The position numbers were made by a program, and so were the translations under genes. A DNA stretch of 64,000 nt from Romanomermis culicivorax (taxonomy: Eukaryota; Nematoda; Enoplea; Mermithida; Mermithidae): assembly GCA_963922205.1 (NCBI GenBank), contig CAWUHX010000021.1, positions 930,001 through 994,000 on the forward strand, given 5' to 3'. This document shows, in pieces, positions 1 through 64,000 of the stretch (position 1 is its first letter; each line of letters opens with the position of its first letter). Below the pieces are notes generated by a model. That model saw only the letters and a program-made list of their open reading frames with translations. It ran no database searches and was not told the DNA's origin.

Positions 1-3000
1 CCTGGGCCTCAACGACTAGTTGTCTGTTCGCAAACGAGCACGCCTGGGCATACCACCTACCAATTGCCGTTGGCGTGATCGGAGCGAAGTCCAACTGAAG
101 AAAAATCATTAGGGTCACATACCTAATGGCCGTGAAGACGTCTGAGGCATCGTAGTCCTGAAGCCATCTGGGGATGAGAATTAAAATTATCCATTCCCAG
201 ATCTCCTCAGGGATGCGCTCTCCGTCGAACATAAATCCGCCTTGCATTTCGAATTGCTGGCGGTAATTTTCGTGAATCTCGGCCATGGCATCATTGACCA
301 TTCTGTAAATTATCGGCCGTTCTTGCCGATCAAAGGCGAAATAATTGGCGACCTCTGGATTTTCAAATGAGATCGGCCCAATTAAGCGCCTTTGTTCCCT
401 TTGCCACTCCCAATAATCAATCAGAGTTTCGGCCAATTGACCAGGAGTGACAAACTGCTGTGGTTCCCTTTCGGGTCTAGTAGCTACCACATTCAGCTTG
501 ACCTTCTTGATCAATTTCTCCTCCGATTCAAGATCGGGCTTCACCAATACGCTTCCCGCAGGTTTGCTACTTCTTGCGGTATAGCTGGAGGGCACGGATT
601 TACTTTTGCCAGAAGTAGTACTAACCTCTCCGCCGGTTTTCGATACCGTTCGCGTCTGAGTGTACGATGTTGTCGCAGTGGACCCTGTTGTCCTATCCGA
701 TTTTGTCTGGCCTATGGAGGTCTCCGTTCGCGTCTGACTTTTTGAAGTCTCCGTTCTCGTTTGACTCTTTGAAGTCTCCGATCTCGACTTTTGGCTCGTC
801 GAGTATTGTGGGGTCGTCGTTTCTTCGGCCGTATCGTAGGCGTCGTTTTCGGATCCGGTGGCGGCCGCTCCTTGTTGCTGCTGTCCCTGAGCTGCAAGTC
901 TGCGTCGCTTGGCCTTACCTATCCTCTTTCTTCGCCTTACCTTTTCCTTGGCTAGGTGTCGGATAAATTTTTCCGACATCCCTTCAGCTAACATCTGCTG
1001 AACTTTGTCTGGGGAATAAATTCCAGGAATACCTTCCTCGGCAATTCTTCCCCTCCGCATCAGCTCTGTCGCTGCAATGGCTGAATCTGAGCTATCGTCG
1101 GCTAGTGCCTGCTCCTTCAGCTTTCTTTGGATTGCCCTCTGACGCAGGAATTCCTGCTGCGTCAGCCTTCTCTGTTCCTGAATTTTGGCCTGTAAGGCCT
1201 CTTGCTTCGCTTGACGGTCATGATCCTTAGGATCTTTGGCCTTCACAGGTATCTCCTGGGATGCTTCCTGCATCTTCTCCAGTCTGACATCTATTCCCGA
1301 CATTTTAGTGACTGCTTCGTCAATTTGAGTCTGGATTTTTTCCTTCTCAAGAGCCTGTTTCTGAGTTTTGGCCTCCATCGCATCCTTATTCTCTGATGTC
1401 TGGCCCTCAGATTCGAGGATTTCACCCTCTTCTTCTTCTTCTACATCCTCCTCTGAACTGGACTCAGAGTCTGAATTCCGTATCTTCGGCAACAGCTGCT
1501 TTACTTTAGCCGGCAAAACAGCTGGTGCAGGAGGTACTGATTGCATTATGGTGACAACCTCTGGCACAGGCTCGGCCGGTTGTTGTACTTGCGGTACTTG
1601 AGTCGGCTGTGCCACCGCTGGTTGGATTGGCGGCGGCACCACGACAACTACTGCAGCTGCCTGCGTAGCAGCAGTGTCCAAAGCTGGTGTAGCTTTGACC
1701 ACTGGCGCTAGCGCCTGCGGCTGCGCTTTGACCTGTCCCGTCCCTCCGGCTTGCACCGTTTGGGAAGTTGAGGGACGATTTAGCGGTACCTTAGAAATTA
1801 ACTCACCGGCTGGGGTATATGTAAGTGTATACCCGGGCATTTCCGAAGCGATTGTTCTCTCCCGGAAGCTTTTGCTGACAAACTCCGGTCTGAGCTCGAG
1901 CGGATTTCTCGGTGCGTAGGTAATCGGGTAGTCGGTTGGCGATGCGTCTTCCGTCATGGGATACCGCAGTCCCGGCGTTAAAGTCTCGAAGCCTACGTAG
2001 TAAAAAGTTACATAGAAATAAGGATTTACCTTGTAGGCTCCGTCCTTCAATAACGATTTGTCGTCGCCAATTTGTAGAATCTCCTCGGCTTCTCGAAATC
2101 GTAGCGGGACAAAACCGAACCGATTCTGCCATGCGTATACCCCTTTTTTAGATGGAAAGCGGGGTTCCGACGGCGGTAGCGTCGCTGCCAATTCTAAATA
2201 GTAAGCCAGGCGGTCGCCTGACTTCCAGGACATTTTCTTTATCATTTCCTGGCCTTCTTTAGTATAACTATTTAGAAAGTTATAATTTAGCAGAGCGCTA
2301 GTTTCATAATCGCACTCCGCTCTGGAATGAGGCCATGCCAAATGATAAGCCAATGGCATAAATTTGCAGATGACCTCTAACTCTGGGAAGTTTCGCTCAT
2401 CCAGCATACCTGAAATCTTTGCCAAGTTTGGCGTGTAAAAATTGGTCTTGTAGGCCTGTCTATGGCCCTCGATACCCACTGGGTAGTGGTTATTAGAGGA
2501 AAACACCTCTTGTGGAATGGTATCGGGCTTCCCGGCTTGTTGCCAGTATAGCTTGGCGTTTTCGTACAACGTTAAAGAAATTTTCCCGTCTAAATCCCAG
2601 TAGGCTCCGCCTGACTTGAGATTTTCCAGGATATCTTTTGAAATATTTATCCAGTCTGGTATCTGGACGTCCTGGATTTCGTCGGGATCGCTATCTGTGG
2701 TGTATCCGTCGTCCTTCAGTGGTTTGTTATCTCTTGGAAGTAGTGGGTAGAAACCACTTGGCAACTGAACTCCCTGCGGACGGACTGGATTACACTCCGT
2801 GGGCGCGGTATAATAACCTGTGCTATTTCCCTGCATCTGTACCGCCCAACGGTTATACATCTCACACTTCATCATGTGATAGACCATGTTTGGTTGAACC
2901 TGGTCGGTTTCCATAACTGGGGTACCTAGCCCCATTTCTCGATTCACATTGCCCGGAATCATTAGATATTGTTGATAAAAATGGAGGGCAATGGTGTTGA

Positions 3001-4644
3001 TCTGTTTGGGATCCACCTTGTCATGGTCGAAAATCTGCATTTGCATAAGCAGTTGATCGGCCATGCCATAGTGAATGGCGGCAAACATGACCAATAAGGA
3101 GTAATATGCGTCTAGAGCGGCGTATCTGAGCTCTTCCGGCAATATACCCCTTTTTGCAAACCGATCACGGTTCGCTTTTAACGAAAAGTCATATTGGTAG
3201 GGGCCCACGTCTATCAAATAAAATTCCGTGAACAGTCCCTTTAACCGAAAGGTTTCGGGACATATACCTGTCTGAAAGCATTTCTTCTCCAGGTTCACTC
3301 CTACCATGGTGAGGGCGAAACGGTCTAAGTCAAAGTATCGACCTTTGGTCTTTCTTAGAAATTCCCGTAAGGGGACAGTTTTGTCCCTGTCCTTATTATC
3401 TCGCCCTGCGCCACAAACGTTATAGATACTCACCAGATCTTCCAGCACGGCATATCCGGCGAACAGCATGTCGGAGTTCAAGAAGTCGTGGAGGCTGGTC
3501 CACTCTTTGATCATCATCGACGTTGTATCAATAACGTAAGTTTGACCGTTCGTTAGCGCGATGCTGATATATCGGGCAAACTGTTTTCCCATTGGATTGT
3601 CGACCTCCCTTGTTTTGAACAAGGCGGCGACCTTATCCTGGTTGACTTTTTCAACGTCGAAACCACAAACTGGTTGTCCTCTGAAGATTGACACTTCTCG
3701 GATAAAATGGAGTACCTGGCTGACCTTCCCGATGTCTACCATTCGAGGTTCCTTGGGATTGGCCGGCCAGTACCCAAATGTGGCTTTAAACCACTGATCC
3801 AGTTCGTGGATTCGTACGGCCCGTTTGACGTTATAATCTAAACATAAAGTACTATTAATTTTAGTGTTTTATTCCCCTTTTTTCAGCGCATTTCTAGGGT
3901 CTATACTACACCAGCACCACAACACCAAGCGGGTTAAGTTTCGCAGAAAATTAAGTTTAGTGCAGGTTGTTAGGTGAGCCACTGATATACAAACATTGAG
4001 CTGGTAGGCAACTAACACCTTACCAAATCTTACCCTTGCTACCTCTATATGTTGGGGAGGGTAGACCTGATCCGATTGTCCACCACTTGATCGGACACCA
4101 ATCTCTGACCAGCTGCTTGAGCGACCAACTACGCTCCATTTATGGCGCTGTATTTACAATTTTTATAGCGCTCGAAATTGATAATTTTTAATGAATTTGA
4201 TATCGAAAAAGTGATATGATTTGATTTGATTTGAAAATAAATAATTTTTGATAAATTTTTTGAAATGATAAAACTTTAAACGGGCTGAACCCAAGGTTCT
4301 AGGTTTCCTTTGAATCGTATAGCTCTCGGTGGTATCAGGTATATTTCCAAATTGGAAATTCCCTGCTTGGCTTCGAGCTTCCGTTTCTCAGTACTCCCAT
4401 TTTTCGTTCCCTCTAAGTTCTAACCTCGTCTGCCCTTTGGGGCGCCGAGCTGGTCTTCCAGTGACTTCTGGGCATTACCTGCGGTTTCCAAGAATATTTG
4501 ATAAAAATAAGTTCGAAACTTACCGTCGATAAAGAAAAAACGGTTGTCTTGGCGGTGCTGGGCCCTGCCGTATTCAACGTGGCGCTCTGTGTGCGACCAC
4601 TCGCGCGTCGGAGCTTGTTGGCGGTTCCGCGCGCCCTTTCCCAT
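1..4644 (-). CDS. ORF2: DEDDy 3'-5' exonuclease-domain protein of the retrotransposon (spliced; 3' end outside window)
   Basis: Predicted join: exon 4524-4644 (40 codons plus 1 nt) and exon 3837 to below 1. The second frame is open for 1278 codons, to the window edge. Residues about 95-300 carry the family's motifs. Exo I is GFDVE (D101, E103). Exo II is in [11 protein letters not shown] (D174). Exo III is YAALD (Y279, D283). Together these give the D-E-D-D-Y set of RNase D, WRN-exonuclease and Egalitarian-type proteins. Then follow a long unassigned region, a Pro/Ala/Gln-rich linker (~750), an acidic run (~840), a probable coiled coil (~860-950), a basic cluster (~1005-1025), 9-residue repeats of TSKSQTRTE type (~1060-1090), and a conserved Trp-rich block (~1170-1280). 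The right copy indicates a total near 1500 residues with a Gly/Arg/Gln-rich tail. It sits where env lies in errantiviruses but has no envelope features. The catalytic set is intact; substrate unknown. Confidence 0.85.
3838..4523 (-). other. Predicted intron inside ORF2
   Basis: 686 bp. The donor GGTAAGT follows the codons for FFID at 4524, and the acceptor TTTAG precedes exon 2. Joining restores one frame, a split GAT codon. In the right copy the acceptor is kept but the donor has become TTAAGC. The intron is AT-rich with no other feature seen. Confidence 0.75.
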
Positions 4645-4710
4645 TTCTTTCCTTTTCGAAATTTTTGTTTTCGAATAATAAATTGATAAATTTATTAAAA
4701 ATTTTGAACG

Positions 4711-4722
4711 CTGAAAAAGTTT
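4711..4722 (-). other. Predicted 3' splice acceptor upstream of ORF2
   Basis: On the minus strand the spacer after gag-pol holds AACTTTTTCAG, a strong acceptor, 67 nt before the ORF2 ATG. The same site is kept in the decayed right copy (ATACTTTTTCAG ending near 40143). With the GTAAGT donors in the LTR this suggests that ORF2 is made from a spliced mRNA, as env is in gypsy. This is inferred; no transcript was seen. Confidence 0.5.
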
Positions 4723-5076
4723 AATTTAGCAGTTCTGCTAATTTCCTTTTTATCGCGGTTCGGGGAATATTTTACTTCTTCCTTCCGATGGAAGTTTAGA
4801 ATTCAGATAAGCGGGGCAGCTATAATTTGATTTTGAAAAAAAAATGAAAAATTTGAAAGTTAATTTTTTAGAAAAAATGTCAGAAATTTTTTGGGTTGTC
4901 ACTTTGGTCTAAAATTCCGAAGAATTTTTCCCAAAGTCTGAAATAAATATGAAAAATTTACAAAATTATTACGAATACTACATAAACGCGATAAATATTA
5001 CAACTTAATACAATTTTAATTAAAATTAGTACTTACACGCGCGAGATATGTACACAAAAATAAAAAAAAAAAAAAA

Positions 5077-8000
5077 TCAGCGCGAGATCGCGCATAGATT
5101 CGCCTTGAGCGAATTTTCAAATGATTTAATTTGAATCGGCGCTCCAGTTGTAACTGTTTGTGCCATATTGGAAAGTGACGTGTTTTCGTCACGTGGCGCG
5201 TCCTGATTGGCTCGCGCTATTCGCGGCAAGACCCTAGTGGTCTCGTAACGAAAATGTTTCAACCTGCTGATTGAAACAGTTTGGCGATTTAGCGGGTTGT
5301 CCCAATGTACAATGGTGACAACGTTCTCTGCTTCTCGCGAAATGTCCGTAACTATGAACGGACCGGACCATGGTAGTCCAAGTTTTTTCTGCTTATCTAC
5401 TTTGAGCAGAACCCAGTCCTTTTCTTTAAATCCATTTTGCTTGGATTTTTTATCGAAGTATTTCTTCGATTTTTCAGCAGCACTCTGGATATTTTTGGCA
5501 ATATCCTCGTAAAGGTTGACTAAATGATTGGTCAACACAAATTTGTATGCCTCAGCATTGCTGTCCGGCATTACAATATCGTATGCTTTCGATAAGTTTA
5601 ACCCGAAGGTTGCCTCGTGACCTCTAAGCAACGAAAATGGGGATTGCCCCGTGGCTGCATGTGGCGTAGCATTGTAAGCAAATACCACAGCTCTCAAGTA
5701 TCTTGGCCAGTTATCTTTTTCCTCGATGGCCACCTTTCTGAGCTGTTTGATGAGTGTCTGATTAAACCTTTCTACCATACCATTTCCTTGTGGATGGTAG
5801 GCTGTTGTAAAAATTTTTTGACACTCCAATAACTTGCAGATCTCCTTCATTAGATCTGAGGTAAAACAACCTCCTCTATCGCTGAGTAGTCTCCGTGGAG
5901 TCCCGTGCCTGAATACAATGGCTTGTAGAAAAGTATCTACAACGGTGCTAGCTGACTGATCCGGGATCAGTTCAGCTTCAACCCACTTTGTAAAATAGTC
6001 CTGAAAGACTATGACATACGGTCTCTTCTCACTGAGTGGAGAAATACCCACGATATCCACTGATACAATGTCAAAAGGACCTTGTGGAATAATTGGTATC
6101 AGTGGTGGAATTTCTGTGTTTCCCTGATTAGCCATTTGACAAACTGGACAAAACTTGATCCAGTGCCTGACATCCTTTCCAATTCCAGGCCACCAGAACC
6201 GTTTTTTAATCATAGCAAGGGTTCTTTTGAACCCTTGATGAGTCATCATTACGGCACCGTGGTACTGGTGCAAAGTATTGTCCCTAAGGCAGGATGGGAC
6301 GACCACTTGATCGTCCGACCCCTGTCCGGCTTCGCGGTATAACACTTCATTTTGGATATAAAATCCACTATGATACTTGGTTGTCCCATTTGGACCCAAT
6401 CTATCAAAGTATGGCTGTAATACCTGATCTTTTCTCTGCAAGAGGGCCATGAGATCATCTCTAATTAGCCCTTTTGGTAATTCATCTTCTTTGGGGTCTG
6501 CCAAAGTAAACTCTTGTTCCTTTTCTGGGTATAACCAGGTTACTCTTTTTTCCTTACCTTTGTCCTGGTTTCCCCTACTTACCTTATCTTTGACCTGATT
6601 GCCGTCAGGCTGGATCTGAGCCTGATTATTCTTGTCCGCTTCTTTCGCCATGCTCCTTGTAGTTACGGCATTTACCAAGTCTGCAGGCGAGTTTGATTCT
6701 GGATCACCCTCAGAATCTTCTGGGTAAATCTTGGTGAATCTCGGACTCATGTCAGTCCTCTGATTCTTCTTACCTTTTGGCTCCGGATGTAACGGAGTAC
6801 CGTCTTCAGGATTCCGATCTGTCAGAATTCTGAATCTCTTTACCAAATTGAGATGTTTTTTCTCTATAAGCTGTGCCTCAAGATCTTTCAGATTTTCGGA
6901 CTCTCGTTTATCCTTTGAGAACATGTGTTCCCATTTTGGCGGTATTTTTTCCGCTTGATCGTCTGGTTCATCCATCCTGGACAAAAAGTCTGCCATGGCA
7001 TTTTGTTTTCCAGGCACATACTCTAGTTTATGGTTGAACTGAGAGATGAACGAGTACCATCTCTTCAACTTACCATTGGTCATGGCATTGACCTTCATAG
7101 ATAATAAAGGTTTGTGATCAGTTCTTATGATCACCTTATGACCCACTAAGTAGTGCTTGTATAACTTCAAGCCATACACAATTGCCAAGCATTCCCTTTC
7201 CGTGGCTGACCACTTTTTCTCATCCGCTTTTAAAATTCTGCTATTATAAGCAATTACCCAGCGGTCTGACTTGGTCTCCTGGTAAAGGACTGCTCCTAGT
7301 GCCGTTCCGCTGGCATCTGTCTGAAGGACAAAGTCCGCAGACCCGTCCAAAACCGGATACCTAAGGAATGGCACTGACAATAGTGCTTCTTTCAGGCTCC
7401 TAAAAGCCTGATGGTGAACCTCCGTGACTTCCCAAACACAGTTCTTCCCAGTTAGTTTGTACAACGGTTCGGCGTGTTTAGCCAAACCCGGTATGAACTT
7501 TTTACACCACTGCAACATACCTAGAAACCTTTGCAGTTTGCGTTTAGACTCTGGGAATGGGAAATCATTTATAGCTTTGACCTTTTTCGGATCTGGGGAA
7601 ACTCCATCCGAATTTAAGATATGTCCTAAAAAATGAACTCTCTCAGGCAGGAATTCACACTTCTCCGGCTTCAAGGTCAAATGAGCCTTTCTTAGAGCTT
7701 GCAGGACTAGCTCTAGATTAACTAAGTGTTCCTCAAACGTATTTGAGAACACAATTATATCGTCTATATAGACTAGACAGATTTTCCAAACATATGGATG
7801 CAAAACTCTTTCCATCATACGCTGGAACTCGGCTGGCGCATTTTTTAGGCCAAAGGGCATGACTTTAAATTGATAAAGCCCTTCTTGGCATATGAAAGCA
7901 GTTTTTTCCTTGCTTTCCTCATCCATTGGCACTTGCCAATATCCTGATTTGAGATCTAGGGTAGTATAAAATTTGGCTTTACCTAAACAGTCTAGATAGT

Positions 8001-11000
8001 CATCCATTCTAGGAATGGGATACTTATCATCCTTGGTAACATCATTTATACCCCTAAAGTCCACTACTGGTCGCTTGGTACCATCCTTTTTACCTACAAG
8101 GAATAACGGAGCTGCCCAAGGCGACTTTGATGGCTCAATTACACCCTTCTTGAGCATATCTTGCACATGCTCACGAACATGTGGCCGTAAATTTATGGCA
8201 GTCCTGTGGTACCTTTTTGCCACAGGTGCTGCATCCCCTGTATTTATTTTACAGGTCAAATAGGGTGTAGTAGTTGGAGGATCACTGGGCAAGCTGAACA
8301 CGTCTCTATATTTTGCGAGACACCGTAAAGCTTGTTCCAATTGTTCAGATGGTATGTTGGATTTAGCTAGCATATTGTACAGGGCTTCCTTGAACTCTTT
8401 CTCATCCACTTGAGTCGAATCAGGTCTAGCCTGGACTGCACAAGTTTGCAGCTTCTCCAAATCCTCAAGTATCTTCCCCTTAAGTTGATCTTGGTTATCA
8501 GTATCACACAACACTGAATTAGTATAGCCAATTATTTGATTTCTTTTCAAATGGCATCCTGATCCTGTGTTGTTGGATACCATAACAACAAAATCATCTT
8601 TTGTACCATCTACTACGGTACTATCAATGTGGAACCTTTCTTCATTGTCTTCAGACTCTATTATGATTCCATTAAGGCGATTTTCGCCTACCTTATCCCA
8701 AAGCTTTGCTCTCAGAAGTATATCAGTACCACTAGGTAAGTAGATTGGATTCACACTCACCACTGGTACCGAAACCTTTAGCAGGCAAATCTTTGGCTGG
8801 TATTGGTCGGCGGCGCTCATTGTGGATTCCGCGGCGCTCGTGGTCATGACCTCTCCACAATTTGATTGGGGCTGGTCCGGCGTCACGTATATCCGTTGTT
8901 GACGGTTGTTGAGCATCATCGTCCTATTCCTGAAATCTATTATGGCTCCTACCTGAGGATGAGCCAAAAAGTCTGTTCCTACAATGACATTTTCACCTGC
9001 TTCAGGGATTACAATTGCTTTAACGGGGAACTGTCCACACAATGTATCCATCCTAAATTGGATATACCCATGGGCTTGGACTGTCTTACCGTTGGCTACA
9101 GTGACATTTAATATCCTCGGATATTCAGTGTAATCTGGGCCCAAAGTTTCTTTCAGAAACTTAGCCGACATGACAGTGCACTGAGCTCCTGTGTCAATTA
9201 AAGCCATTGTCTTACGACCTCCTATAACAACCTCAATGTGGAATGGGGCTGTTCTGGGGTACGTATCCAGCAAATGTTGTTCCTGGGGACTAGCTGGTGT
9301 GCCTCTCCTTATTACTTGTACTGATGGTACTACAGGTTGTGGTGCAATTGCATTCATTTGCACAATACTACCTAATACGACATTTGGGCAACTCACTCTC
9401 TGGTTTACTTCACCTAAAGGACTCATCTGAGATTGCCTTGCAACCATAACACTCGAATAATCCTTCTGAGGTGGCTGATTTGTGAACTGACCTTGTTGAA
9501 GAGTCTGAGTCGGACCCATAATAGCCTGTGGAGGCTGAGGATGCTGTAATGCAGCTTGCTGTTGGTATTGCTGCATCTGTTGGAACTGCTTCTGCAGCTC
9601 CTTCTGTTTTTTAAACTCCAGAAATTCATTATAATCTGAATTCTGTTGGTAACTCTCGTGGCTATCCTGATAACCTGAATAGCCTACATTATAAGCACCT
9701 CTGCCTCTGCTATTAAAGTTGGCATTTGGGTAACCTCCTCTACCTCTATAGTTACCTCGAGCAAAAGTGTTGAAGCCTCCCCTGTTGAAGGTAGGGAAGC
9801 TGGCTCTACCTCTGCTCCTGCGCTCGGACAATACTCTCAGTGTCCTGCAGTCTGCAGTATTATGTGTTATGTTCTTGTGGAACTCACACCATGGCTTTGT
9901 CGGATCTCGGGAAACTTGACCTCCCTGACTTGTACTAGGTATGGCCACATCAGACCGATTTTCCGTTTGCCTATTATCAACCTTTTGCTGGAGCTGGTCG
10001 AACCTTTCGACCAGTTGTACCATCTCTTTAGAGATTTTCAATAGAAGAGATTCTTTCTTACCTTTTTCGGTCTGAGCCCTAGGGGCTTCCCGAACTGGAA
10101 TCTCCTCTATTTCAGGAGAATCACTCCTTGACCTTTGGGTTTGTGTCTGTACCTGATTACCTACAGTTTGATATGGTTGCCGAAACCTTTGCCTCTGGCC
10201 TTGTTGATATCCTTCTGACTGGTTCATAGCAACTACGGCAATTTCAGGATCATGCCCACTAGGCATACCTACTTCATTAATTACTATAGGATCCTGTTGT
10301 GTACCCTTGGGTCCATATCTCTGAAAGGCATTCCTATACCTGCGTTCGATGTCATGAACTTCAACTGCTAGATCATACCAAGTTCTAAAGGTATGTTTTG
10401 AATTCTTAAGTTCAGACTGGAACGTGGGGTCACTCTTATAAATGAAGGTTTCAATGATCAGTCTCTGTTTAGACTGATAGTCCAAATCACCTTTAACTAG
10501 TTCCACTAATATACTGACCCTTTTTAAAAACTCTACGGCCTGTTCATTGGGTCTTTGTTGGATCTCAAACAACTCCCTGGTTAACATTTCCAGGTTACAC
10601 TCAGGTGCAAAGACATTAATAATGGCTCTCCTGGCCTCCCTATAGGTCATGTTGTCTCCTGCAACAGCCTTCGGTCTACCCTTAGAAAGCCTCAGCAGTG
10701 CTTCATACTTAGCTGATTCGGGTGTATCCCTACGGAATTCCCCTTCAAGTGCTGTTAAGAAGCTAAGCACCTGCTGATTTACCATACCCTCATCTAAAAG
10801 TTTGGGTAACACACCTTTAACGATATTCCTTACTACAATCTCTTGTGCCAAATTATTTGATGGCACTTCCCTCTGATCATAAGCTGCTGTTAACACTGGA
10901 TCAAGATCAGAGTTCAGGGATTGCAGCATAACCCTATTTGGATCTCGTTGAGGTGGTACACCTCCTTGATATGATGGCATATTGTCTTTGTCAAACCTGT

Positions 11001-11913
11001 AATCCCTATATGGGAAACATGCCAATTGATCTGGTCTAAGGGTATTTGGATCAACTATATTTCCTCTACCATCATAGACCACTCTAGTTAAAGTTGGATG
11101 CTGCGGAGCTATCTGATTTTGATTCCTGAAGTCTGCCGATTGCTCAGCTCCTTCGAACCGAAGATCTCTAGCTGGACCTCTCCAACTTTTGGGCTCAAAG
11201 TTAAGCCTTTGCCCTTCATCAATATCAGGCCTATTACTAGGCCCTGCGCCTGCATTTATTTCAGCAGCGAGACGGTTGTCTCTTTCTGCACCCCTATTAC
11301 ATGGTCTAACCTGTCTATCCGGCTCCTGTCGGCGCCTGTCGGCTTCCCTTTTGTTGTCCTCTGTGGCGGCATTCGCGATTATGTCGAACAAGGCTTCGAC
11401 GGTCCCTTTCAACTCGCGTAGCTGCGTCGCCAACTCCTGATTGGACATCTCGGGAGCTCTTTCCTGCGGTTGGAATCGCTCTTGTTCCTGGGGAATCCTC
11501 TCTAATCTTTGATCGATTTCGGGGTCCCTTTCTTCGAAATTTGGTCGAATTTCGGGCGTAACGACGTCCCTTTTTGGTCCTGCTAATTCGACCTTTGGCG
11601 GTGGTGACCTTTTGAAATTTTGCTGCGGCGGTCCATCGGCGTCTGGGTTCGGATTCGCCGGGCCTGCCTCCTGCGGATCGATGGCAATCGCTGGCGGTCG
11701 GTCAATTGGTACGCCTGCATCTTGAGGCGTAAAATGCATTGCATTTTGTTGCAATGGTTGAACCCTCGCGGGAGTTTGATCTGGGATCACTGGGTCCGGA
11801 GCAGCCTGCCGTTGCTGATCTCCGTCTCCCAAATTGACTAGATTCCCAGCACTCGCCACTCTGGGTGGTGATCTACTTAAAGTATTACCTCTCGGTATCC
11901 TTTCATTAGGCAT
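5077..11913 (-). CDS. Gag-Pol polyprotein, 2278 residues
   Basis: One uninterrupted ORF. Gag: Pro/Gln-rich N-terminus, a helical capsid-like region about 355-540, then a C-H-H-C zinc knuckle (C676, H679, H684, C689) and an Arg/Gly-rich stretch about 700-740. Pol: aspartic protease with DTGA at 907-910; reverse transcriptase with YIDD at 1382-1385; RNase H beginning at D1533 (QTDASG); a charged linker about 1650-1815; integrase zinc finger H1885, H1892, C1922, C1925; DDE core D1953, D2012, E2048 (spacing 58 and 35); and a GPF motif at 2184-2186. There is no chromodomain and no gag/pol frameshift. The frame upstream of this ATG stays open and is conserved for 24 codons in the right copy, which begins at an ATG where this copy has ACG. 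The N-terminus is therefore uncertain. Confidence 0.97.
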
Positions 11914-11990: not shown

Positions 11991-12007
11991 GGAGTTAAAA
12001 GCCACCA
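11991..12007 (-). other. Primer binding site (putative)
   Basis: Two bases after the LTR end comes TGGTGGCTTTTAACTCC. It starts with the TGG expected opposite a tRNA CCA end and is identical in the right copy (39261-39277). I cannot assign the tRNA species. Confidence 0.6.
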
Positions 12008-12009
12008 CT

Positions 12010-12626
12010 TGTTGTGCAGGTCTTTCCTTAAGAGGCGTAAGAAAAGATTGGGTCTGAACTGACCTGTTAGAACTGATACCTTGGCTAAGCCTCGGTGATC
12101 TGTGCAACAGTCCGTTTGTCCCCAGACCTACAACAACAAAGATAAACTTTGTGCTAAATACGGGGGCCTTACCAAAGACCTCCGCAGTCTCCTAGATGAG
12201 ACAAGGAATCCCCTCAGGGATAAACTTACTTGGGTATAACCCGAAAGGGGTTTCCCAAAACTTACTTGATGTAAGCCGGCGCCTGGGCCTCTGGCCCTCC
12301 GCCTTCGTCGATGCGAATTATCTAAACAAATAACCGAATATATTAAGCAATAAATCCGACGAAATATGTAAAACGAATGTGGGTACACCACAGTAGAATA
12401 CTCATAAACAAAAGACGTTGCTGGGAAAATTATATTTAGGGACGCCAGCAAATAACACCAAAAATATAATAAAAAACGTGAATGTAGTGAAGAATGATTT
12501 CACTTTCATTTTTCGTCTTTCTTTGGCGCTCCATTCTATGCAAATGTCTGCGCCGCTGGTCGTCCCTGTCGTCGATTTGCATGTCGATTTCCCCACACGA
12601 AATTGGCATCAACAGGGTGCCCAACA
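12010..12626 (-). repeat. 5' LTR of left retrotransposon copy
   Basis: 617 bp, starting TGTTGGGCACC and ending CTGCACAACA, so the ends form the inverted pair TGTTG/CAACA. The boundaries were fixed by alignment with the LTRs at 38678, 46174 and 63552, which share start, end and central blocks such as GGCCCAGGCGCC. It contains two perfect GTAAGT donor-like sites on the minus strand (G at 12265 and 12229) and a late pyrimidine-rich TTGTTGTTGTAG. This resembles a leader donor/acceptor set. Confidence 0.9.
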
Positions 12627-13329: not shown

Positions 13330-13620
13330 TTCATTTCTCAGTCCGGCGTTGAGGGCCGGTAAAATTTTCGGATTTTCACTTTCTAAAACGCTAGAAAATG
13401 AATCTCTGCAACAAAAATTTTTGAACAGAAGTTCTAAAATTGCATTCTAGAATGTTTTTTTTATCTTCATCATCTATAAATGTTAGAAACGTTTCAAATG
13501 TTAAAAACGTTTCAAATGTTAAAATGTTAAAAACATGTTAAAAACGTTTCAAATATTTCAGGCTCCGAGAGAAAAAATTTAGAGAATTGATGAAAAATCT
13601 CAATTTTCGACGAAATACTT
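13330..13620. repeat. Partial copy of the foldback repeat family
   Basis: Matches the right arm of the element at 14067-15513 (shared blocks AACGCTAGAAAATGAATCTC and AGAAGTTCTAAAAT), with a short local GTTTCAAATGTTAAAAAC tandem repeat inside. Flanking 13688-13710 and 13856-13870 are C-homopolymer tracts. Confidence 0.6.
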
Positions 13621-14066
13621 ACACTAAACGATTACAAAATTTTTTAGGGTAGAGTAAATCCATACCATACCTGTACTTGGCGGGGGGATTGGGGGAGGAC
13701 CCCCCCCCCCCCAACTTGGCCAACAATGTACCAACATTAAACAACTTACCCCCAGTTTGGAAAAGTTAAAAAAATTTGCAAAAAAGTGTATGTTTTTTGG
13801 CCTTTTTTGGGGAAAACTTCGACTTTTTTCTACCCCCGCCCAAAAGTTCAGATTTACCCCCCCCCCCCCTCCCCCCAACTGGTCGGAGGTCTAACAGGTA
13901 TGTCTTACAGGTATGTTTAAAGACAATTCCTGTTTGCACTGCGCGGCAACAAATGATATTCTGTTGAGGCACTACGATCATTTTAAACGTTTAAAAATTT
14001 CTAGCATTGAACTGACGAGCAGTTGGTGACAAAGTGCTGATTGATCCAGGTAAAAGGCTTTCATAA

Positions 14067-38500: not shown

Positions 38501-41500
38501 AATGTTTTGACCAAATCTGATTTTTTGTACTGAAAGCTGCCATCACAAGTGGCTATTCAGCTGACACAGGGTCTCATTGGCAAGAACACGTTTTTACAAT
38601 AATATTCTCATGTTTGTTGCATTTTACTTCGCCAAATTTTTGGCCTGTAGAAAACTTTTGCCAAATTTTTGGCCTATTGTTGGGCACCCTGCTGCTGGCA
38701 AGTTGTGATGGGAAATCCACATGCAAATCGACGAGTTGGACGACCAGATGGAGCGCCACAGAGAGACAAAAATGATAGTGATAAAATCATTGTCATTATT
38801 ATTATATTTTTTGATAAACATTGTGCTGGCGTCCAATAAAACTTTCACCAGCGAATTAGTATCAACTTAGCATAAATTGTATGGTGGTGTACCTATCGTT
38901 TTAACATTCGCCTTATATTTTTTATTGATATATTATTTACTATTTAGATCCGATTAATCGTCTGAAGTGAAGGGCCAAAGGCTCAGGCACCTCGCTTGCT
39001 GATAGCAAGCACAGGAAGACCTACTAGGAATCCTGCAGGTAAGTTATCTGGGAAAAGAAACTTCTTCTCTCCTAGGAGACTTCGAGGGCTCTGCTGTGAG
39101 GCCCCTCGATTGGAAGTAAGTTATTTATTGTTGTTGCTAGGTCTGGGGGAACCGGACTGCTGCACGATTTCCGAGGCTTAGCCAAGGAATTAGCTCTAAC
39201 AGTTCAGTTCAGACCAGAACCAATTTTTTCTTGACCCTAAGGAAAGACCTGCACAACAAGTGGTGGCTTTTAACTCCTCATAATGGAACTTCATCGTCAG
39301 ACTAGGAGAAAAGAATATACTCCAGGTTTCTACAGAAAATTAGCTGGATTTAAAATGCCAAATGAAAGGATACCGAGAGGTAATACTTTGCATAGATCAC
39401 CACCTAGAGTGGTGAATCCAGGAAATTTACTTAATTTGGGAGACGGAGATCAGCAACCTCAGGCTGCTCTGGACCCAGCAATTCCAGATCAAACTCCTGC
39501 GAGAGTACAGCCATTGCAGCAGCAGGCAATGCACTTTACGCCCCAAGATGCAGGCGTGCCATTAGACCGCCTGCCAGCGCCAAATTGTTTCAATCAGCAG
39601 GTTGAAATATTTTTATTACGAGACCACTAGGGTTTTGCTGCGAATAGCGTGAGCCAATCAGGATGCGCCATGTGAAGAACGCACATCACTTTCCAATATG
39701 GGGCATACAGTTACAACTGGAGCATCAAATCAATCGCAATCATTGTGAAAATCTGCTCAAGGCGAATCTATGCACAATTTTGTGCAGATTTTCTATATTT
39801 TTTGTGTATTTCTCAAGCATGTAAGTACTCATTTTTAAATTTATTCTGTAAAATTTTGTAATATTTATCTCATTTATGTATTATTCGTATTAATTTTGTA
39901 AATTTTTTCATATATCTCAGACTTTGGGAAAAATTCTCCAGAATTTTAGACCTAAGTGACAACCCAAAAATTTTTAGATCTTTTCAAAAAGTTACAACTT
40001 TCAAATTTTTCATTTTTCCAAAGTAAATTATTGCTGTCCCCGCTCATCTGAATTCTATACTTCCACGAGAAGGAAGAAGTAAAACTTCCCCCATATAATA
40101 CATAAAAAGGAAATTAGCAAGTTGCTAAATTATACTTTTTCAGCATTTACAAAATTTTTGAAATTTTAAAATTTTACTATTTGAAAGAACAAATTTTCAA
40201 AAAAATCGAAAATGGGAAAAGGTGCCCGGAACTGCCAACAAGCTCTGACCTGCGAGTGGTCACACACCAAGCACCATGTAGAATATGGAAGACCGCAACA
40301 CCTGCAAGATAACCGGTTCTTCTTCATGGACTTTAAGCTTCGAACTTATTTTATTAAACACTTCTGGAAATCACAGGAAATTCCCAGAAGTCACTGGAAG
40401 ACCAACTTGGCGCCCCAAATAAGGGCAGACGAGGTCAAGACTTAGAGGAGACGAAAAATGGGAGTACCAAGAATTGGAAACTCATAGCCAATCAGGGATT
40501 TCCTAATTTGGAAATAGACCTACTATCAGCAAGAGTTCAGGGATTTCCTAATTTGGAAATAGACCTACTATCAGCCAAGGTTCTAATCAGGGATTTCCTA
40601 ATTTGGAAATAGACCTACTATCAGCCAAGGTTCTAAGTTTTCCTTTCAAGGAAAACTTAGAACCTTGGGTTCAGCCTGTTCAAATTTTAAATTATCAAAT
40701 TTCAACAAAAATTAATTATTTTCAAATCAAATTATATCATTTTTCAAAATCAAAATCATATAAAATTGTAAATACTGAGCACCGAAAATGGAGCATAGTT
40801 GGTTGCTCAAGCAGCTGGTCAGAGATTGGTGTTCGATCAAGTGGTGGACAATCAGATCAGGTCTACCATCCCCAACATATAGAGGTAGCAAGGGTAAGAT
40901 TTGGTAAGGTGTTAGTTGCCTACCAGCTAAATGTTTGTTATATCAGTGGCTCACCTAACACAAGCCTGCACTAATCTATCTTTCTGCAGAACTTAAGCTG
41001 CTTGGTGTAGTAGTGTTGGTGTATTATAGACCTCAAATAGATGCTGAAAAGAGGGGAATAAAACATTGAAACTTATACTATTTTCAATTATTTAGACTAC
41101 AATGTCAAAAGGGTCGTCCGAGTCCATGAGCTAGACCAATGGTTCAAAGGAACCTTTGGATACTGGCCAGCCAATCCCAAGGAAAAAATCCCAGTAGACA
41201 TACGGAAGGCCAGCCAGTTACTGGAATATATCTGAGAAGTATCAATCTTCAGAGGACATCCAGTTTGTGGATTTGATGTTGACAAAATAAACCAAGATAA
41301 AGTGGCCACCTTGTTCAAGATGAGAGAGGTCAACAATCCGAAGGACAATCAATTTGCTCGATATATCAGCTAGGTGCTAATGAATGGTCAAACTTACATT
41401 ATCGACACTACCAGCCTCATGGAGAAGGGATGGGTAAGCTTACATGAATTCCTAAATTCAGACATATTGTTCGCTGGATATTCGGTACTAGAGGACCTAG

Positions 41501-44500
41501 TAAGCATATACAATATATGTGGAGCAGGGCAAGACAATAAGGATAAGGACAAAACTGGACGAGGACAAAACTGTCCTTCTTTGATTTAGACTGCTTCGCC
41601 CTAATTATTGCAGGCCCAAACCTAGAGAAACAGTGTTTTCAGCTAGGCATTTGTCCCAAAACCTTTACGTTAAAGGGATTATTCATGTAATTCTACTTGA
41701 TAGACGTGGGGCCTTACCAATATGATTTCACACTCCGGGCAAACCAGGATTGGTTTGCCAAAAGATTTTGCCAGAAGAGCTGAGATATGCAGCTCTAGAT
41801 GCATATTGTTCATTACGAGTTATGTTTGCAGCAATCCATTATAGCATGGCTGATTACCTATTGATGCAAATGCAGGTTATCAACCATGATAGAATGGAAC
41901 CCAAACAAATTAACATGGTAGCTCTACATTTTTACCAACAGTATTCAACCATTCCTGGGCATGTTAAATATGAAATGGGACTAGGTTCCACAGTCATGGA
42001 AACTGATCAGGTACAGCCCACTATGGTGTACCATATGATGAAGTGCGTAATGTACAATCAATGGGCCGTGCAAATGCAGGGCAATGAAATAGGGTACTAT
42101 ACCCCAGCATCCAGGGGCAATCCTGCCAGAGGACAAGACATGCCCTTGCCAAGTTGATTTTTCCCCTTATTTCCAAGGTATAGTAAACCACTAAAAAGCG
42201 ATGGCTATACCAAGGACAGTGATCCTGATGACATACAAGATGTCCAAATTCCAGATTGGGACAACATCAGTGCTGATATACTGGAAAATTTTAGAAGCAG
42301 TAAGTCTTACTGGGATTTAGATGATAAAATCTCACTGACATTATATGAGAATGCTAAGCAATACTGGCTACAGGCCAGGAAGCCTAAGGATATTCCATGA
42401 GAGGCGTCCTTTAGTAACAACCATTACCCACTGGAGATCGAAGGCCATAAACAAACCTATAAGACCAATTTTTATATGCCAAATCCGGCCAAAATATCTA
42501 CGGCTTTAGATGAGCAAAACTTGGTGGAGTTAGAGCAAGTCTGTAGATTTATGCCATTGGCCTATCATTTGGCATGGCCTCATTCTAGAGAGGAGTGCAG
42601 CTTTGTAACAGCACAGCTGCTAAACTATAATTTTCTAAATAGCTACAGCAGGGATCCCCAAGAAGTGATGAAATGCATGTCCTGGAAGTCAGGCGACTCC
42701 CTGGCTTACTATTTAGAATTAGCTGCGACGTTACCACCATAGGAACCCCAGCATGCCTTAAAGACAGGGGTATACGCTTGGCAAAATTGGTTTGGATTCG
42801 TGCCTTTGTGATTTAGGAAAGCAAAAGAAATGCTGAAAATGGGTGAAGGCAAATCGATTTAGGATATGGAGCCTATAGGGTAAACCCTTATTATTATGTA
42901 ACCTTTTACTATATAGGTTTCAAGTCTCTAACACCGGGACTACAGTATCCCATGAGGGAAGATGCGAATCTAATGGATTATCCCACGGCATACACACGAC
43001 ACAATCCCCTCCAAATCAGACTGGAATTTGTCTTGAAGAGTTTCTGGCAGAGAATGCTAGCCTCAGACAGTTTCAAAGTTTCAAAGGTACCTTTAAATTG
43101 TCCTTCAATATCCCAGACAGTGCAAGCTGGAGGGTCAGGACAAGTCAAAACACAGCAGCAAGCACCAGTGCCAGTGGTCAAATCACAACAACCAGGGGTT
43201 ATCACCGGACCTACACAGCTGCAGTAGTTGTGGTGCCACTGCAAACGCAACCAGCAGTGGCACAGCCAGCTACAGTACCTCAACTTCAGCAACCAGTAGA
43301 GGTAGAACTGGAAGTAGTCACCATCATGCAATCCGACCCTCCAGCTCCAGCTGTTTTGCCAGCTAAAGTTAAACAGCTGTTGCTGAAGATATGAAATTCA
43401 GACTCCAAGTCCAGTTTGGAGGAGGAAGAAGAGGGTGAAATTCTGGAGTCTGCAAGCTGGACAGTCGAGGAGAAAGACTCCATGGAGGCTAAAATGCAGC
43501 AACAGGAAATAGAAGAGGAGAAAATCTAGACTCAAATAGATGAGGCAGCAACCAAAATCTCGGGAATAGATGTTAGACTGGACAAGATGCAGGAAACATC
43601 CCAGGAAATACCTGTCCAGCCTAAGGATGCTAAGGCTCATAACTTGCAGGCAAAATGTGAAGCCCTGCAGGCAAAAATTGTGAAACAAAAGCGCCTGGTG
43701 CAGCAGGAATTCCTGCCTCAGCAGGTGTTACAAAAGAAGTTGAAGGAGCAGTCATATGCTGATGACAGCTCAGATTTAGCAGTAGCAGCCACAGAGCTGA
43801 TGAAGAGGGGAAAATTTATGATGAAGGAATCCCTGGAGTTTATTCTCCTGAAAAAGTTCAGCAGAGGATGGCTGAGATAATGTCGGAAAGATTTATCCAA
43901 CAATTAGCCAGAGAAAAGGTAAGACGCCAAGTCGGATTAAGTAAAGGGCGTCAACGTAGACTAGCAGCTGAACAGCAGCCTCAAGGAACGCCTGTGACTG
44001 GTTCTGAAAATGATGCCTACAACACGGCTGAAGACACGACAACCCCGGACACCACACAACTCAAAAGTTGAAGACAGAGACTCAAGGAGTCAAATGAAAT
44101 TGAATAAACCCACAATATCTGCTGCAACATACACTCAGACGTGAACAGTATCGAAAACTGGCAGAGAGCTCAGTACATCATCTGGCAAATCTAAGTCTAT
44201 TCCCATGAACTATACCCCCAAAAACAGAAAACTTTATAGCGAAAAGGTGGGAAGCATAGTGGTAAATCTCGATTTTGAATCAGAGGAAAAGTTGATCAAA
44301 AATGTTGAATTGAATGTGGTGGTTACTAAACCCGCAAGTGAACCACAGAAATATGTCACTTCGGGTCAATTAGCAGAGACTCTGATCAATTATTGGGAAT
44401 GGCAGAGGGAGCAAAGGCAAATGATTGGCCCCATCTCATTTGAAAATCCAGAGGTGGCCAATTATTTTGCCTTTGACTGCCAAGAACAGCCAATAGTCTA

Positions 44501-47500
44501 TAGAATGGTCAACAATGCCATGGCTGAGATATATGATAACTACTTCCAGCAATTTCAAATGCAGGGTGGTTTCATGTTTGAGGGAGAATGCATACCTGAA
44601 GAAATTTGGGAGTGGATCATAGATCTCATTCCCAGATGGCTTCAGGATTACGATGCTTCAGATGTCTTTACCACCATCAGGTACATGACCCTGATGATAT
44701 TTTTACAGTTGGATTTCACTCTGATCATGCCCATGGCAATTGGTAGGTGGTATGCCTAGGCCTGTTTGTTTGTGAACAGACAATTGGCCATCGAAGCCCA
44801 GCGAAACTGTGTAGATGAGTACTACATTGCAGCCTTTCAGCAGTACATCTTTATGGGGTCGCAGAGGTTAAACCAAATGGGTGTGAAAAGGAAGGCACCG
44901 GGTGATGACAAGCTTAAGCCTGATAAATATCAGTGCATGGACGCCAAGAGCTCTGGTAAGTTTAAGGTGCCTAGACTCCCACCGGCTAAAAAACAGCAGC
45001 CGTCGACGCAGCAATCTTTGAGCTCGACCAGCCAGAGGTTGTATAGTGGAGCCGCTACTTCTTCATACAAAAGTCCACTTTCCAAATCTCAATCTCCATC
45101 ATCAAAATCTCTAAATTCAACTTTTCAACCACAAAAACAATATATCGGTTTCACAAGCAGCGGCTCAGTGTGGAGACAACAGGGGAGAGATGATGCATTC
45201 TCAAACTCTGCCCCTTACAGGGGTAGACTGGGGTATGGCGGAGGCCAAATCAGAGGAGGTTTTCGAGGGCAGCCTCAGTGACCCTATGGAGGCTGAGGAA
45301 ACTGGCAATGCCAAGGCCAAGACCCAGATGCATAGTTTTACAATCCAAATTTTGAACTGCTTGGCAGACGCGGTAGAGGCCAAGGTGGATAAAACCAAGG
45401 CCAAGATGGAGGTCAGACCCGAGGCCAAGGCCAGAGGGGATATTATCGAGGAAGGCCTCAAGGAGGCTATAGAGGTGGCGAGCAGCAGCAGTAATCAGCC
45501 GCATAATTTTGGCCCAAAATTCACTTTTTCGTATATTCTTTTACTTTTTCTTTTTTTAAAATTACAGAAACCCTCAAAAAATATAAAATCACAAAAATCC
45601 AAAAATATTATTTAAATTGTGGTGCTGCTGGCCTACAAAAATCTTCTTTTTGACAAACTAGTGCAAAAAGCATCCATAAAAATATTTTCAAAATTTTGGC
45701 CACATTTTGCTCAATTTTTAGCACATTTTTATTTTTGTGATACTCATACATTCCTGGGTCATCCTTTCTGTATCGTAAATATAACTTGCATTTTAGTCTA
45801 TTTTAGAAAAATAGAGACGTGAGAAAGTGGTATGCATGATCAGTTAGACCATTGACCAGCAACTTGCCACAACATGCAGACCATACAACTGAACCCGAAA
45901 TCGACCCAATTCGACACTGATGGCACCATCATACTCCTTAGGACAGGAGGTCTTTCCACCAAAGCCGAGGTCAAAATAGGTGTCACTTGCCAGCCATTGC
46001 CGGGAAGTCCTTGGTATTTGTTGTATCCAACGACCATTATGGGAGTTTGAGCCAAGACCGACTGGGAAGCCAGGAGTCCGCCAAACGGTAGACATTTTTG
46101 GTAATGTTTCTAATGCAGAAGGAACCAGGCCAAAAGTTTTTTCTACCTCCCATAGGTCGGTTTCGACATGGGACGTTGGGCACCCTGTTGCTGGCAACTT
46201 GCAATGGGAAATCGACGAGTTGGATGACCAGCGTGCAAACATTTGCATAGAGATGGAGCACCACAGAGAGACAAAAATGATAGTTATAAAATCATTGTCA
46301 TTATTATATTTTTTGATAAACATTGTGCTGGCGTCCAATGAAACTTTCACCAGCGAATTAGTATCAACCATACATGCAGGTGGGGGGTTTGACCCCCAGC
46401 AGATTCTTGCTGAGCCCCAGCAGATTTAACTTTTCCAGCAATGATTGAGAAGACGACGAAGGAAAATGAGCAAGAGAGAAAAGAGTCGTCATAAAAATGG
46501 AAATGACATTACAGTTTGACAATTTTTCTAAACAAATCATACTTGATCCCAAAAAAGTAACATGGAAACTTTAAAAAGTGGTGTTTAAGCAAATAGTTTC
46601 ACATATCTGACTAATGTAGGTTGAAGAATATGCTGCTTGGATGTTAGAAGACATTCTGAGACCTATCTTTTCATTATCAAGAATGAAAAAAATTTGTATT
46701 CTACCCCCCCCCCCCCCGTCCTGGCTGACCCCCCACAGAATTTCTATGCCGTGCATGTATGGTATCAACTTTGCAGAAATTGTATAGTGGTGTACCCACA
46801 TTCGTTTTAACATTCGCCCAATATTTTTTATTGATATATTATTCACTATTTAGATCCGATTAATCGTCTGGAGGGAAGGGCCAAAGGCCCAGGCGCCCAG
46901 CTTGCTGACAGCAAGCACAGGAAGACCTACTAGGGACCCTGCAGGTAAGTCTATCCCGGAGGGGAAACCTCTTCTAGGAGACTTCGAGGGCTCTGTTATG
47001 AGGCCCCTCGATTGGAAGTAAGTTTTCTATTGTTGTTGCCAGGTCTGGGGGAACTGGACTGCTGTGCGATCTCGGAGGCTTAGCCAAGGAATTAGCTCTA
47101 ACAGGTCAGTTCAGACCAGAACCAATCTTTTCTTGACCCTAAGGAAAGACCTGCACAACAATATAACTTCTGCCAAATTTTTTAGGGTGGGGTAAATCCA
47201 TAACCTGTCCATACCATGTGTGCATGTATGTTATTCACGATCATTTGCTGATGTCTAAGGTTGTGCCCATTGGATACACGAAGATATTGAAAAACTGAAG
47301 GAGACAAGGGGTTTGCTTTCAGTATAGAACTTTTGACCCTTTACCGAGCCGACCTCGTTGATTTTCATGCTCGTCTTGTTACTGAAGACGAAAATGGTTT
47401 CATTATGGGAATCTACAATGCAAGCAGGAATACATCCAGTGGAAGCATACCGATTTCTCACCACCTACGAAGTTTCCAACTGTAAAATCGGCTCGAAAAA

Positions 47501-63551: not shown

Positions 63552-64000
63552 TGTTGGGCACCCTGTTGATGGCAAGCTGCGACGGAAAATCGACATGCAA
63601 ATCGAAGAACTGGACGACCAGCAGCACAGGCATTTGCATAGAAGTGGAGCGCCACAGAAAGACGGAAATGATAATGACAAACCATTGTCATATTTTTATA
63701 TATTTTCGGTAAACATAATCTGGCGTCCAGTAAAACCTTTACCCAGCAAACTCGTATTTATTTGCATAAATTATATAGTGGTGTAACCACATTCTTTTTA
63801 ATATTCGTCGGATATTATTGTTTGATATACTGTTTATTATTTAGATTCGACAAGCCGTTTGAAGCGGAGGGCCAAAGGCCCAGGCGCCCCGCTTGCGGAC
63901 TGCAAATTCAGGAAAACCGCTTAGGGATCCTGCAAGTAAGTCTATCCCGGAGGGGATACTTTTCTCTCCTAGGAGACTTTGAGGGCTCCATTGTAAGGCC
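63552..64000 (+). repeat. LTR of a third retrotransposon copy (truncated by window)
   Basis: Begins TGTTGGGCACC and stays collinear with the other LTRs to the window end, including CTGCAA/GTAAGT. Solo LTR or full element cannot be told. Confidence 0.88.

What the first reader, a model, noticed from the sequence alone, without database searches (positions are those of the whole stretch)
1..4644. Ty3/gypsy element carrying a DEDDy 3'-5' exonuclease as a second ORF
Seen: exo I GFDVE, exo II in AGYAVLEDL and exo III YAALD lie in order and at family spacing in an intact ORF after gag-pol. Known: D-E-D-D plus Tyr defines the RNase D/WRN/Egalitarian exonuclease class, and Ty3/gypsy elements normally carry env or nothing in this slot. 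Inference: a captured exonuclease that may trim RNA or cDNA ends, degrade host silencing RNAs, or proofread.
Basis: partly seen in the sequence, partly recalled or inferred. Interest (0 to 1): 0.88.

Follow-up and report, generated by a model that had tools for sequence, protein, structure and literature searches.

The report
Worm retrotransposon with probable exonuclease gene
A jumping gene, most likely of a mosquito-parasitic roundworm, carries after its usual genes an extra, well-conserved gene whose beginning looks like an RNA-trimming enzyme; such extras are already known from rotifers, so this is a further and somewhat different case rather than a wholly new kind.

Summary
On the minus strand an intact Ty3/gypsy gag-pol (5077-11913) is followed by an open frame (3742 to the window edge); read with a GT-AG intron from 4644, the motifs fall at D101/E103, D174 and Y279/D283. 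The frame belongs to the element: a second copy in the window (38678-47160, + strand) holds it between two LTRs, and 15 of 41 related gene models also hold gag-pol pieces. Between the two copies, 1209 codons give dN/dS 0.137.

The exonuclease call is probable, not proven. Pfam offers one family, PF01612, at 12.6-13.6 bits against a cut-off of 23.6; family profiles match one PDB chain at E<=10, a mut-7 homologue. Against it: weak scores with bacterial RNase D profiles, unusable AlphaFold models, and catalytic Asp residues no better kept than average among mostly broken copies.

It is not a first: bdelloid rotifer LTR elements carry DEDDy ORF3s (PMC5408684). New here: probably a nematode host (Romanomermis), a spliced, very long protein, and evidence of long purifying selection.

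The parts
12010..12626 (-). Copy 1: 5' LTR (the 3' LTR would lie beyond base 1, outside the window)
   Evidence: Alignment to the LTRs of copy 2 and to the piece at 63552-64000; limits approximate
11991..12007 (-). Copy 1: primer-binding-site-like TGGTGGCTTTTAACTCC directly after the LTR
   Evidence: Sequence printed, the same bases after the 5' LTR of copy 2; reading it as a PBS is recalled knowledge
5077..11913 (-). Copy 1: gag-pol, one intact frame of 2278 codons
8959..9237 (-). Aspartic protease domain (PF13975)
   Evidence: E 5.4e-10
7615..8094 (-). Reverse transcriptase domain (PF00078)
   Evidence: E 7.7e-40
7036..7341 (-). RNase H domain (PF17917)
   Evidence: E 1.2e-31
5791..6300 (-). 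Integrase: H2C2 zinc domain (PF17921) and rve core (PF00665)
   Evidence: E 5.6e-19 and 1.9e-15
4711..4720 (-). Splice-acceptor-like CTTTTTCAG upstream of the ORF2 leader exon
   Evidence: Present in both copies; splicing itself not observed
4524..4644 (-). ORF2 leader exon beginning ATG GGA AAG
   Evidence: GT-AG intron in frame; leader-like residues in 3 of 41 gene models (P0002, P0004, P0016); P0004 joins it at the same place
3838..4523 (-). Predicted ORF2 intron, 686 bases, donor GGTAAGT, acceptor GTTTAG
   Evidence: in copy 2 the acceptor is kept but the donor is altered
2..3837 (-). ORF2 main exon (ATG at 3742 if unspliced); runs off the window
3095..3565 (-). Part of ORF2 matched by PF01612 (DNA_pol_A_exo1), below its cut-off
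   Evidence: 13.6 bits, E 0.061, residues 60-216 of the 233-residue query
3650..3664 (-). Exo I motif GFDVE (D101, E103 of the spliced reading)
3437..3439 (-). Exo II Asp (D174) in VLEDLV
3110..3124 (-). Exo III motif YAALD (Y279, D283)
38678..39258 (+). Copy 2: 5' LTR
   Evidence: 89.4% identical to the 3' LTR over 405 columns and 82.4% over 199 columns
39355..39742 (+). Copy 2: what is left of gag-pol, 75 codons of gag joined to the last codons of pol (large internal deletion)
41092..44801 (+). Copy 2: broken ORF2, 5 tblastn pieces with 16 stop codons and frame changes
46175..47160 (+). Copy 2: 3' LTR, with about 390 extra bases at 46369-46761

Best explanation
This is a Ty3/gypsy LTR retrotransposon, most likely of the mermithid nematode Romanomermis culicivorax, that carries between pol and its 3' LTR an own accessory gene, ORF2. 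Inferred from sequence: ORF2 is made from a spliced mRNA, as env is in retroviruses, with a donor in the LTR region, an acceptor before the leader exon and a second 686-base intron. Its protein (1319 residues to the window edge; about 1480 or more if the broken copy's tail is a guide) begins with a DEDDy-type, RNase D/mut-7-like 3'-5' exonuclease domain and ends with a basic and RGG-rich, RNA-binding-like tail. Shown: membership in the element, and past purifying selection. Inferred: the fold, the activity, and the most likely mechanism, namely that the tail binds RNA in the element's RNP and the domain trims RNA 3' ends there (of the element's own transcripts or of RNAs paired with them), in trans and apart from the RT. 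Sub-odds: DEDDy-derived fold about 0.8; catalytically active in intact copies about 0.55; RNA rather than cDNA as substrate about 0.7 if active.
For: Element: PR-RT-RH-IN order; second copy with ORF2 inside two LTRs; 15 of 41 gene models with this domain also hold gag-pol pieces and 21 of 41 hold more of ORF2. Selection: 1209 codons, pN 0.185, pS 0.655, dN/dS 0.137, differences 257/223/555 at codon positions 1/2/3, although copy 2 is already broken. Fold: PF01612 is the one Pfam family offered, over 157 residues; family profiles A2 and A4 each match one PDB chain at E<=10, 7jw2 'Exonuclease mut-7 homolog', in register over Exo III (E 1.7 and 1.6); motif residues D, E, D, Y, D in order. Splicing: in-frame GT-AG intron; GTAAGT in 4 of 4 LTR sequences and CTTTTTCAG before the leader ATG in 2 of 2 copies. 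Tail: KRKAPG and RG/RGG-rich end in copy 2; KRKAPG also in P0006, P0021 and P0030.
Against: No match reaches a cut-off: whole frame 0 Pfam families at E<=1; 0 NCBIfam; 0 of 10 related gene models hit PF01612. Single-sequence PDB searches gave no exonuclease. Bacterial RNase D profile: 2.3 bits, 16 of 2000 shuffles reach it (1135 of them were scored); glocal score reached by 5 of 400 shuffles and exceeded by 1 of 30 control segments; hhalign probabilities 0.45% and 2.4%. AlphaFold pLDDT 36 and 46. ExoI Asp kept in 11 of 18 and ExoIII Asp in 5 of 9 related sequences, against a mean column identity of 0.75; 3 of 9 have Glu at the last Asp. No transcript data were available.
Confidence: 0.7

Rival explanations
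1. ORF2 is DEDDy-derived but works without catalysis, as an RNA-binding or RNA-export accessory protein, in the way of Maelstrom/EXD1 (inactive DEDD derivatives) or of CERV of the C. elegans element Cer1.
For: ExoI and ExoIII Asp are no better kept than average columns. [quoted passage not shown] ORF2 has a basic and RGG-rich tail. Rodriguez et al. note inactive DEDD derivatives in piRNA biogenesis (PMC5408684, passage).
Against: The one intact copy keeps all five motif residues. The related sequences are mostly broken gene models, where loss of a residue says little, and the ExoI codon lies in CpG-rich TTCGACGTT. CERV was reported to have no obvious homology outside nematodes; no sequence comparison with it was made here.
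Confidence: 0.25
2. The exonuclease is a counter-silencing factor that destroys or trims host small RNAs, or their precursors, aimed at the element.
For: DEDDy enzymes act in small-RNA pathways (nibbler, mut-7: recalled; the one PDB chain matched is a mut-7 homologue). A separately spliced gene suits a protein acting in trans. Strong selection.
Against: R. culicivorax was reported without piRNAs/PRG-1 and without 5'-triphosphate siRNAs, keeping RRF-3-type RdRP at clade level (PMC4323106, passages), so few known targets remain. Nothing here links ORF2 to small RNAs.
Confidence: 0.12
3. The exonuclease proofreads or trims cDNA ends made by the element's RT.
For: The DEDD class includes proofreading subunits (PMC5408684, passage).
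Against: ORF2 is a separate gene, not part of pol; nothing recruits it to the RT in sequence; copies differ widely (pS 0.655), which neither supports nor excludes fidelity.
Confidence: 0.05
4. ORF2 is not an exonuclease at all; the motifs are a chance likeness in an unrelated accessory or env-like protein.
For: All profile matches are below cut-off, and bacterial RNase D profiles hardly separate it from shuffles. Structure prediction gave nothing.
Against: The pre-named family is the one Pfam hit and spans 157 residues; two family profiles find one PDB chain, of that class, in register; for env, the most hydrophobic 19-residue stretch of the spliced reading averages only 1.5 (Kyte-Doolittle) and lies far from the end of the protein.
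Confidence: 0.18
5. The frame is a neighbouring host gene, not part of the element.
For: None found; the 3' end of copy 1 is outside the window.
Against: Copy 2 has it inside two LTRs; 15 of 41 gene models link it to gag-pol.
Confidence: 0.02

Closest known systems
Bdelloid rotifer LTR retrotransposons Juno and Vesta with DEDDy ORF3 (Rodriguez, Kenefick and Arkhipova 2017, PMC5408684)
   Same: LTR retrotransposon with an extra gene after pol that encodes an RNase D-like DEDDy exonuclease; catalytic set partly altered there too (DEDD to DEED)
   Different: Rotifer ORF3s show strong homology to DEDDy enzymes by HHpred and their elements have a dUTPase domain; here the match is sub-threshold, no dUTPase family was found, gag-pol is one frame, ORF2 is far longer and apparently spliced. 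No sequence comparison with the rotifer ORFs could be made. The paper reports no significant departure from neutrality in the intragenomic evolution of its ORFs; here dN/dS is 0.137 between two diverged copies.
Bdelloid Terminons / Athena Penelope-like elements with DEDDy ORFs (PMC6431247 and PMC5408684, passages)
   Same: Retroelement with DEDDy accessory ORF
   Different: Another class of retroelement, with no LTR-type integrase
Cer1 of C. elegans with CERV (PMC10309623)
   Same: Nematode Gypsy/Ty3 element with a spliced accessory gene between pol and 3' LTR and a basic signal
   Different: CERV is 517 residues and is not described as an exonuclease in the passages seen; no homology was tested
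RNase D / mut-7 (nibbler) DEDDy exonucleases (PF01612)
   Same: Motif set D-E-D-Y-D in order; match to the Exo III region of PDB 7jw2
   Different: Below Pfam cut-off; ExoII-ExoIII distance 109 against 70 residues in E. coli RNase D; fused to a long unrelated protein in a mobile element

Membership tests
Ty3/gypsy LTR retrotransposon | Pol order PR-RT-RNase H-integrase | tested here: met
Ty3/gypsy LTR retrotransposon | Two LTRs around the coding part | tested here: met
   Copy 2. Copy 1 shows only its 5' LTR because the window ends
Ty3/gypsy LTR retrotransposon | Place in an RT phylogeny | not tested
   No reference element sequences were gathered
Ty3/gypsy LTR retrotransposon | Target-site duplication | tested here: not met
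   Flanks of copy 2 (CCTAT and ATATA) do not match; the copy is old and broken. Copy 1 cannot be tested
DEDDy 3'-5' exonuclease (PF01612 class) | D-x-E, D and Y-x3-D motifs in order in an intact frame | tested here: met
DEDDy 3'-5' exonuclease (PF01612 class) | Profile match above the curated cut-off | tested here: not met
   12.6 and 13.6 bits against 23.6
DEDDy 3'-5' exonuclease (PF01612 class) | RNase H-like DnaQ fold | tested here: inconclusive
   AlphaFold pLDDT 36 and 46
DEDDy 3'-5' exonuclease (PF01612 class) | Catalytic residues conserved across relatives | tested here: inconclusive
   D 11 of 18, E 17 of 20, D 8 of 9, Y 8 of 10, D 5 of 9; relatives are mostly broken copies
DEDDy 3'-5' exonuclease (PF01612 class) | Metal-dependent 3'-5' nuclease activity | not testable with these tools
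   Needs the purified protein
LTR element with captured DEDDy ORF (rotifer type) | DEDDy-like ORF after pol within the element | tested here: met
   Position and linkage met; the DEDDy nature only as far as the rows above
LTR element with captured DEDDy ORF (rotifer type) | Common descent with the rotifer ORFs | not tested
   No rotifer protein came up at E<=10 in the word-based search; rotifer sequences were not at hand
Env-carrying (errantivirus/retrovirus-like) element | Membrane-spanning segment in the third gene | tested here: not met
   Best 19-residue hydropathy 1.5 in the part seen; the end of the copy 1 protein is outside the window

The most novel reading that the evidence does not exclude
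Nematode retrotransposons have independently recruited a mut-7-like exonuclease and fused it to a giant RNA-binding protein expressed like env, as a counter-silencing or RNA-end-processing weapon; together with the rotifer cases this would mean repeated, convergent capture of DEDDy nucleases by unrelated retroelements for one shared step of their life cycle.
Probability: 0.15. Interest if true: 0.8.

Novelty: new variant of a known kind. Interest (0 to 1): 0.5.

Why it matters
DEDDy ORFs in LTR elements were described in bdelloid rotifers with unknown function and no clear sign of selection (PMC5408684). A further case, probably in a nematode, with 1209 comparable codons and dN/dS 0.137, says that such an ORF can be kept by selection for a long time and is worth testing. 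Its spliced, env-like placing gives a clean experiment: remove or inactivate ORF2 and see which step fails (RNA stability, export, cDNA, small RNAs).

Tried and rejected
Led nowhere: AlphaFold on the domain alone (pLDDT 36) and with 13 relatives (pLDDT 46); no fold search was run on these models because their confidence is too low. Bacterial RNase D as bridge: 80 enterobacterial loci (13 sequences used in A5) and 13 plasmid loci, profile and glocal tests with shuffles, hhalign: weak only. PHROGs: one family of unknown function at E 0.16-0.17 over 18 residues. Phage records: no match. Viral contigs: 2 stretches matched a pattern, none confirmed. Protein search with the whole frame's first 600 residues: none at E<=1 among 3826 candidates. 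C-terminal 200 residues: no Pfam match in the last 599 residues and no convincing PDB match.

Rejected: host neighbour gene; env protein (no membrane segment in the part seen); 'never seen before' (PMC5408684). PMC6338049 (one passage) calls a DnaQ-like exonuclease a well-known accessory domain of LTR elements and cites three papers; the word exonuclease does not occur in the main text of PMC5348765, which is probably one of them.

Prior-art searches for a nematode case: (PMC open-licence library, listings only, 8-20 rows each); no listed title or abstract start reports one. That is not proof of absence.
Full report
What is there. The minus strand of the window's start holds a Ty3/gypsy element. 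Gag-pol is a single intact frame of 2278 codons, 5077-11913, with protease, RT, RNase H, H2C2 and rve domains; gag matches PF03732 only below its cut-off (E 0.0078). An LTR of about 617 bases ends at about 12010, followed by a primer-binding-site-like stretch. After pol comes the frame of the finding: 1247 codons from ATG 3742 to the window edge without a stop. Its end and the 3' LTR of this copy are outside the window.

How ORF2 is probably expressed. The gene model P0004 joins leader and main part at the same place, and 3 of 41 gene models contain leader-like residues. A CTTTTTCAG acceptor lies upstream of the leader ATG in both copies, and a GTAAGT donor occurs in all four LTR sequences examined, including the piece at 63552-64000. 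In copy 2 the intron's donor is altered while its acceptor is kept. This resembles the splicing of env in retroviruses; no transcript was seen, so it is inference.

It belongs to the element. A second copy lies at 38678-47160 on the + strand. Its LTRs are 89.4% identical over 405 columns and 82.4% over 199 columns. It has lost most of gag-pol, joining gag codon 75 to pol codon 2210, but keeps ORF2, broken by frame changes and 16 stops, between its LTRs. A word-based search of 5.8 billion proteins gave 23 relatives with one sequence and 40 with a profile, 41 in all; 40 of these names show Romanomermis culicivorax and one (P0007) is cut off before the organism. Of the 41, 15 also hold gag-pol pieces and 21 hold more of ORF2. 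The host is therefore inferred to be R. culicivorax or a near relative: identities are 46-88%, so these are other copies, not this one. The published GC of 36% (PMC3890508, passages) fits the 32-45% of the bins from 12 kb on.

It was under selection. Between the two copies, 1209 codons of ORF2 give pN 0.185, pS 0.655 and dN/dS 0.137; differences at codon positions 1, 2, 3 are 257, 223, 555. The two pieces covering the exonuclease region have pN 0.125 and 0.155; the later pieces have 0.163 to 0.218. Since copy 2 is already decaying, the true constraint was stronger.

Is it an exonuclease? Taken as a test of that one model this is about 2.5e-6, with the caveat that I cut the query to the domain and tried two lengths. 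Family profiles A2 and A4 each found one PDB chain at E<=10, the same one, 7jw2 'Exonuclease mut-7 homolog', E 1.7 and 1.6, with Exo III in register. RNase D has E-D-L at Exo II (invariant E84, D85, L86), as ORF2 has. Of 10 shuffles, none hit PF01612 and one hit another family at E 0.1 over 21 residues.

Against: no Pfam family at E<=1 for the whole frame, none in NCBIfam, none of 10 relatives with PF01612, no exonuclease in single-sequence PDB searches. With a profile of 17 bacterial RNase D-like sequences the domain scores 2.3 bits, which 16 of 2000 shuffles reach; a full-profile score is reached by 5 of 400 shuffles and exceeded by one of 30 control segments, from ORF2 itself. hhalign gives 0.45% and 2.4% probability, aligned at Exo III. 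Both AlphaFold models are unusable. Across the relatives, ExoI Asp is kept in 11 of 18, Glu in 17 of 20, ExoII Asp in 8 of 9, Exo III Tyr in 8 of 10 and Asp in 5 of 9 (3 Glu, 1 Asn), against a mean column identity of 0.75. Most of these are fragments of broken copies, so this weakens but does not exclude catalysis. I put the fold at 0.8 and activity in intact copies at 0.55.

The rest of the protein. No Pfam match in the last 599 residues seen. In copy 2 the tail carries KRKAPG and an RG/RGG-rich end, and KRKAPG is in P0006, P0021 and P0030. The best hydrophobic stretch averages 1.5 over 19 residues, so there is no clear membrane segment in the part seen.

Mechanism. I favour an RNA-binding accessory protein made from its own spliced mRNA, whose N-terminal domain trims RNA 3' ends in the element's RNP. 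A catalytically dead RNA-binding or RNA-export role, as for CERV of Cer1 (PMC10309623, abstract and passages), is the main rival. Anti-silencing is possible, but R. culicivorax was reported to show no piRNAs and no 5'-triphosphate small RNAs (PMC4323106, passages). Proofreading is the least likely, because ORF2 is not part of pol.

Against what is known. Rodriguez et al. 2017 (PMC5408684: abstract, first part of the results and passages) describe DEDDy ORF3s in rotifer Juno and Vesta LTR elements, acquired at least twice, shared with Penelope-like elements, with DEDD changed to DEED; they suggest RNA 3'-end processing and do not show function. What differs here: probably a nematode host, one gag-pol frame, a much longer and apparently spliced ORF2, and a clear sign of purifying selection. 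I could not compare with the rotifer sequences, so common descent is open. Seven literature searches listed no nematode case.

Verdict: a real, element-borne, selected accessory gene with a probable DEDDy exonuclease domain; a new variant of a published kind.

Noticed in passing
39355-39742: Copy 2 lost gag-pol by one large internal deletion (gag codon 75 to pol codon 2210) yet kept ORF2 and both LTRs, a candidate non-autonomous derivative, now broken.
   Followed up: partly
63552-64000: Start of a third LTR of the same family, 75% identical to the 5' LTR of copy 2, running off the window end.
   Followed up: partly
3743-5290 against 39574-41200: DNA between pol and ORF2 is 81-83% identical between copies although 46% of ORF2 third positions differ (555 of 1209); either a constrained non-coding stretch or exchange of ORF2 between subfamilies.
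   Followed up: no
46369-46761: About 390 extra bases inside the 3' LTR of copy 2.
   Followed up: no
34212-34481 and 30353-36308: Host gene exons on the minus strand like neogenin/DCC (best PDB match neogenin, E 1.5e-5 for one exon); a [10 protein letters not shown] stretch at 30353-30820 recalls the DCC/UNC-40 tail.
   Followed up: partly
13351-15479: Large inverted repeats, up to 226 bases at 90% with 619 bases between the arms, like a foldback element.
   Followed up: no
60494-61608: Cluster of short direct and inverted repeats of one unit.
   Followed up: no
47337-47699: Frame with [11 protein letters not shown], which recalls a mariner-type transposase end (from memory; frame).
   Followed up: no
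P0002, P0007, P0031, P0038: Pieces of this element are annotated in UniRef under misleading names (DUF4216, Tsr3, 'Phage protein', mitochondrial carrier), some fused to real host domains.
   Followed up: no
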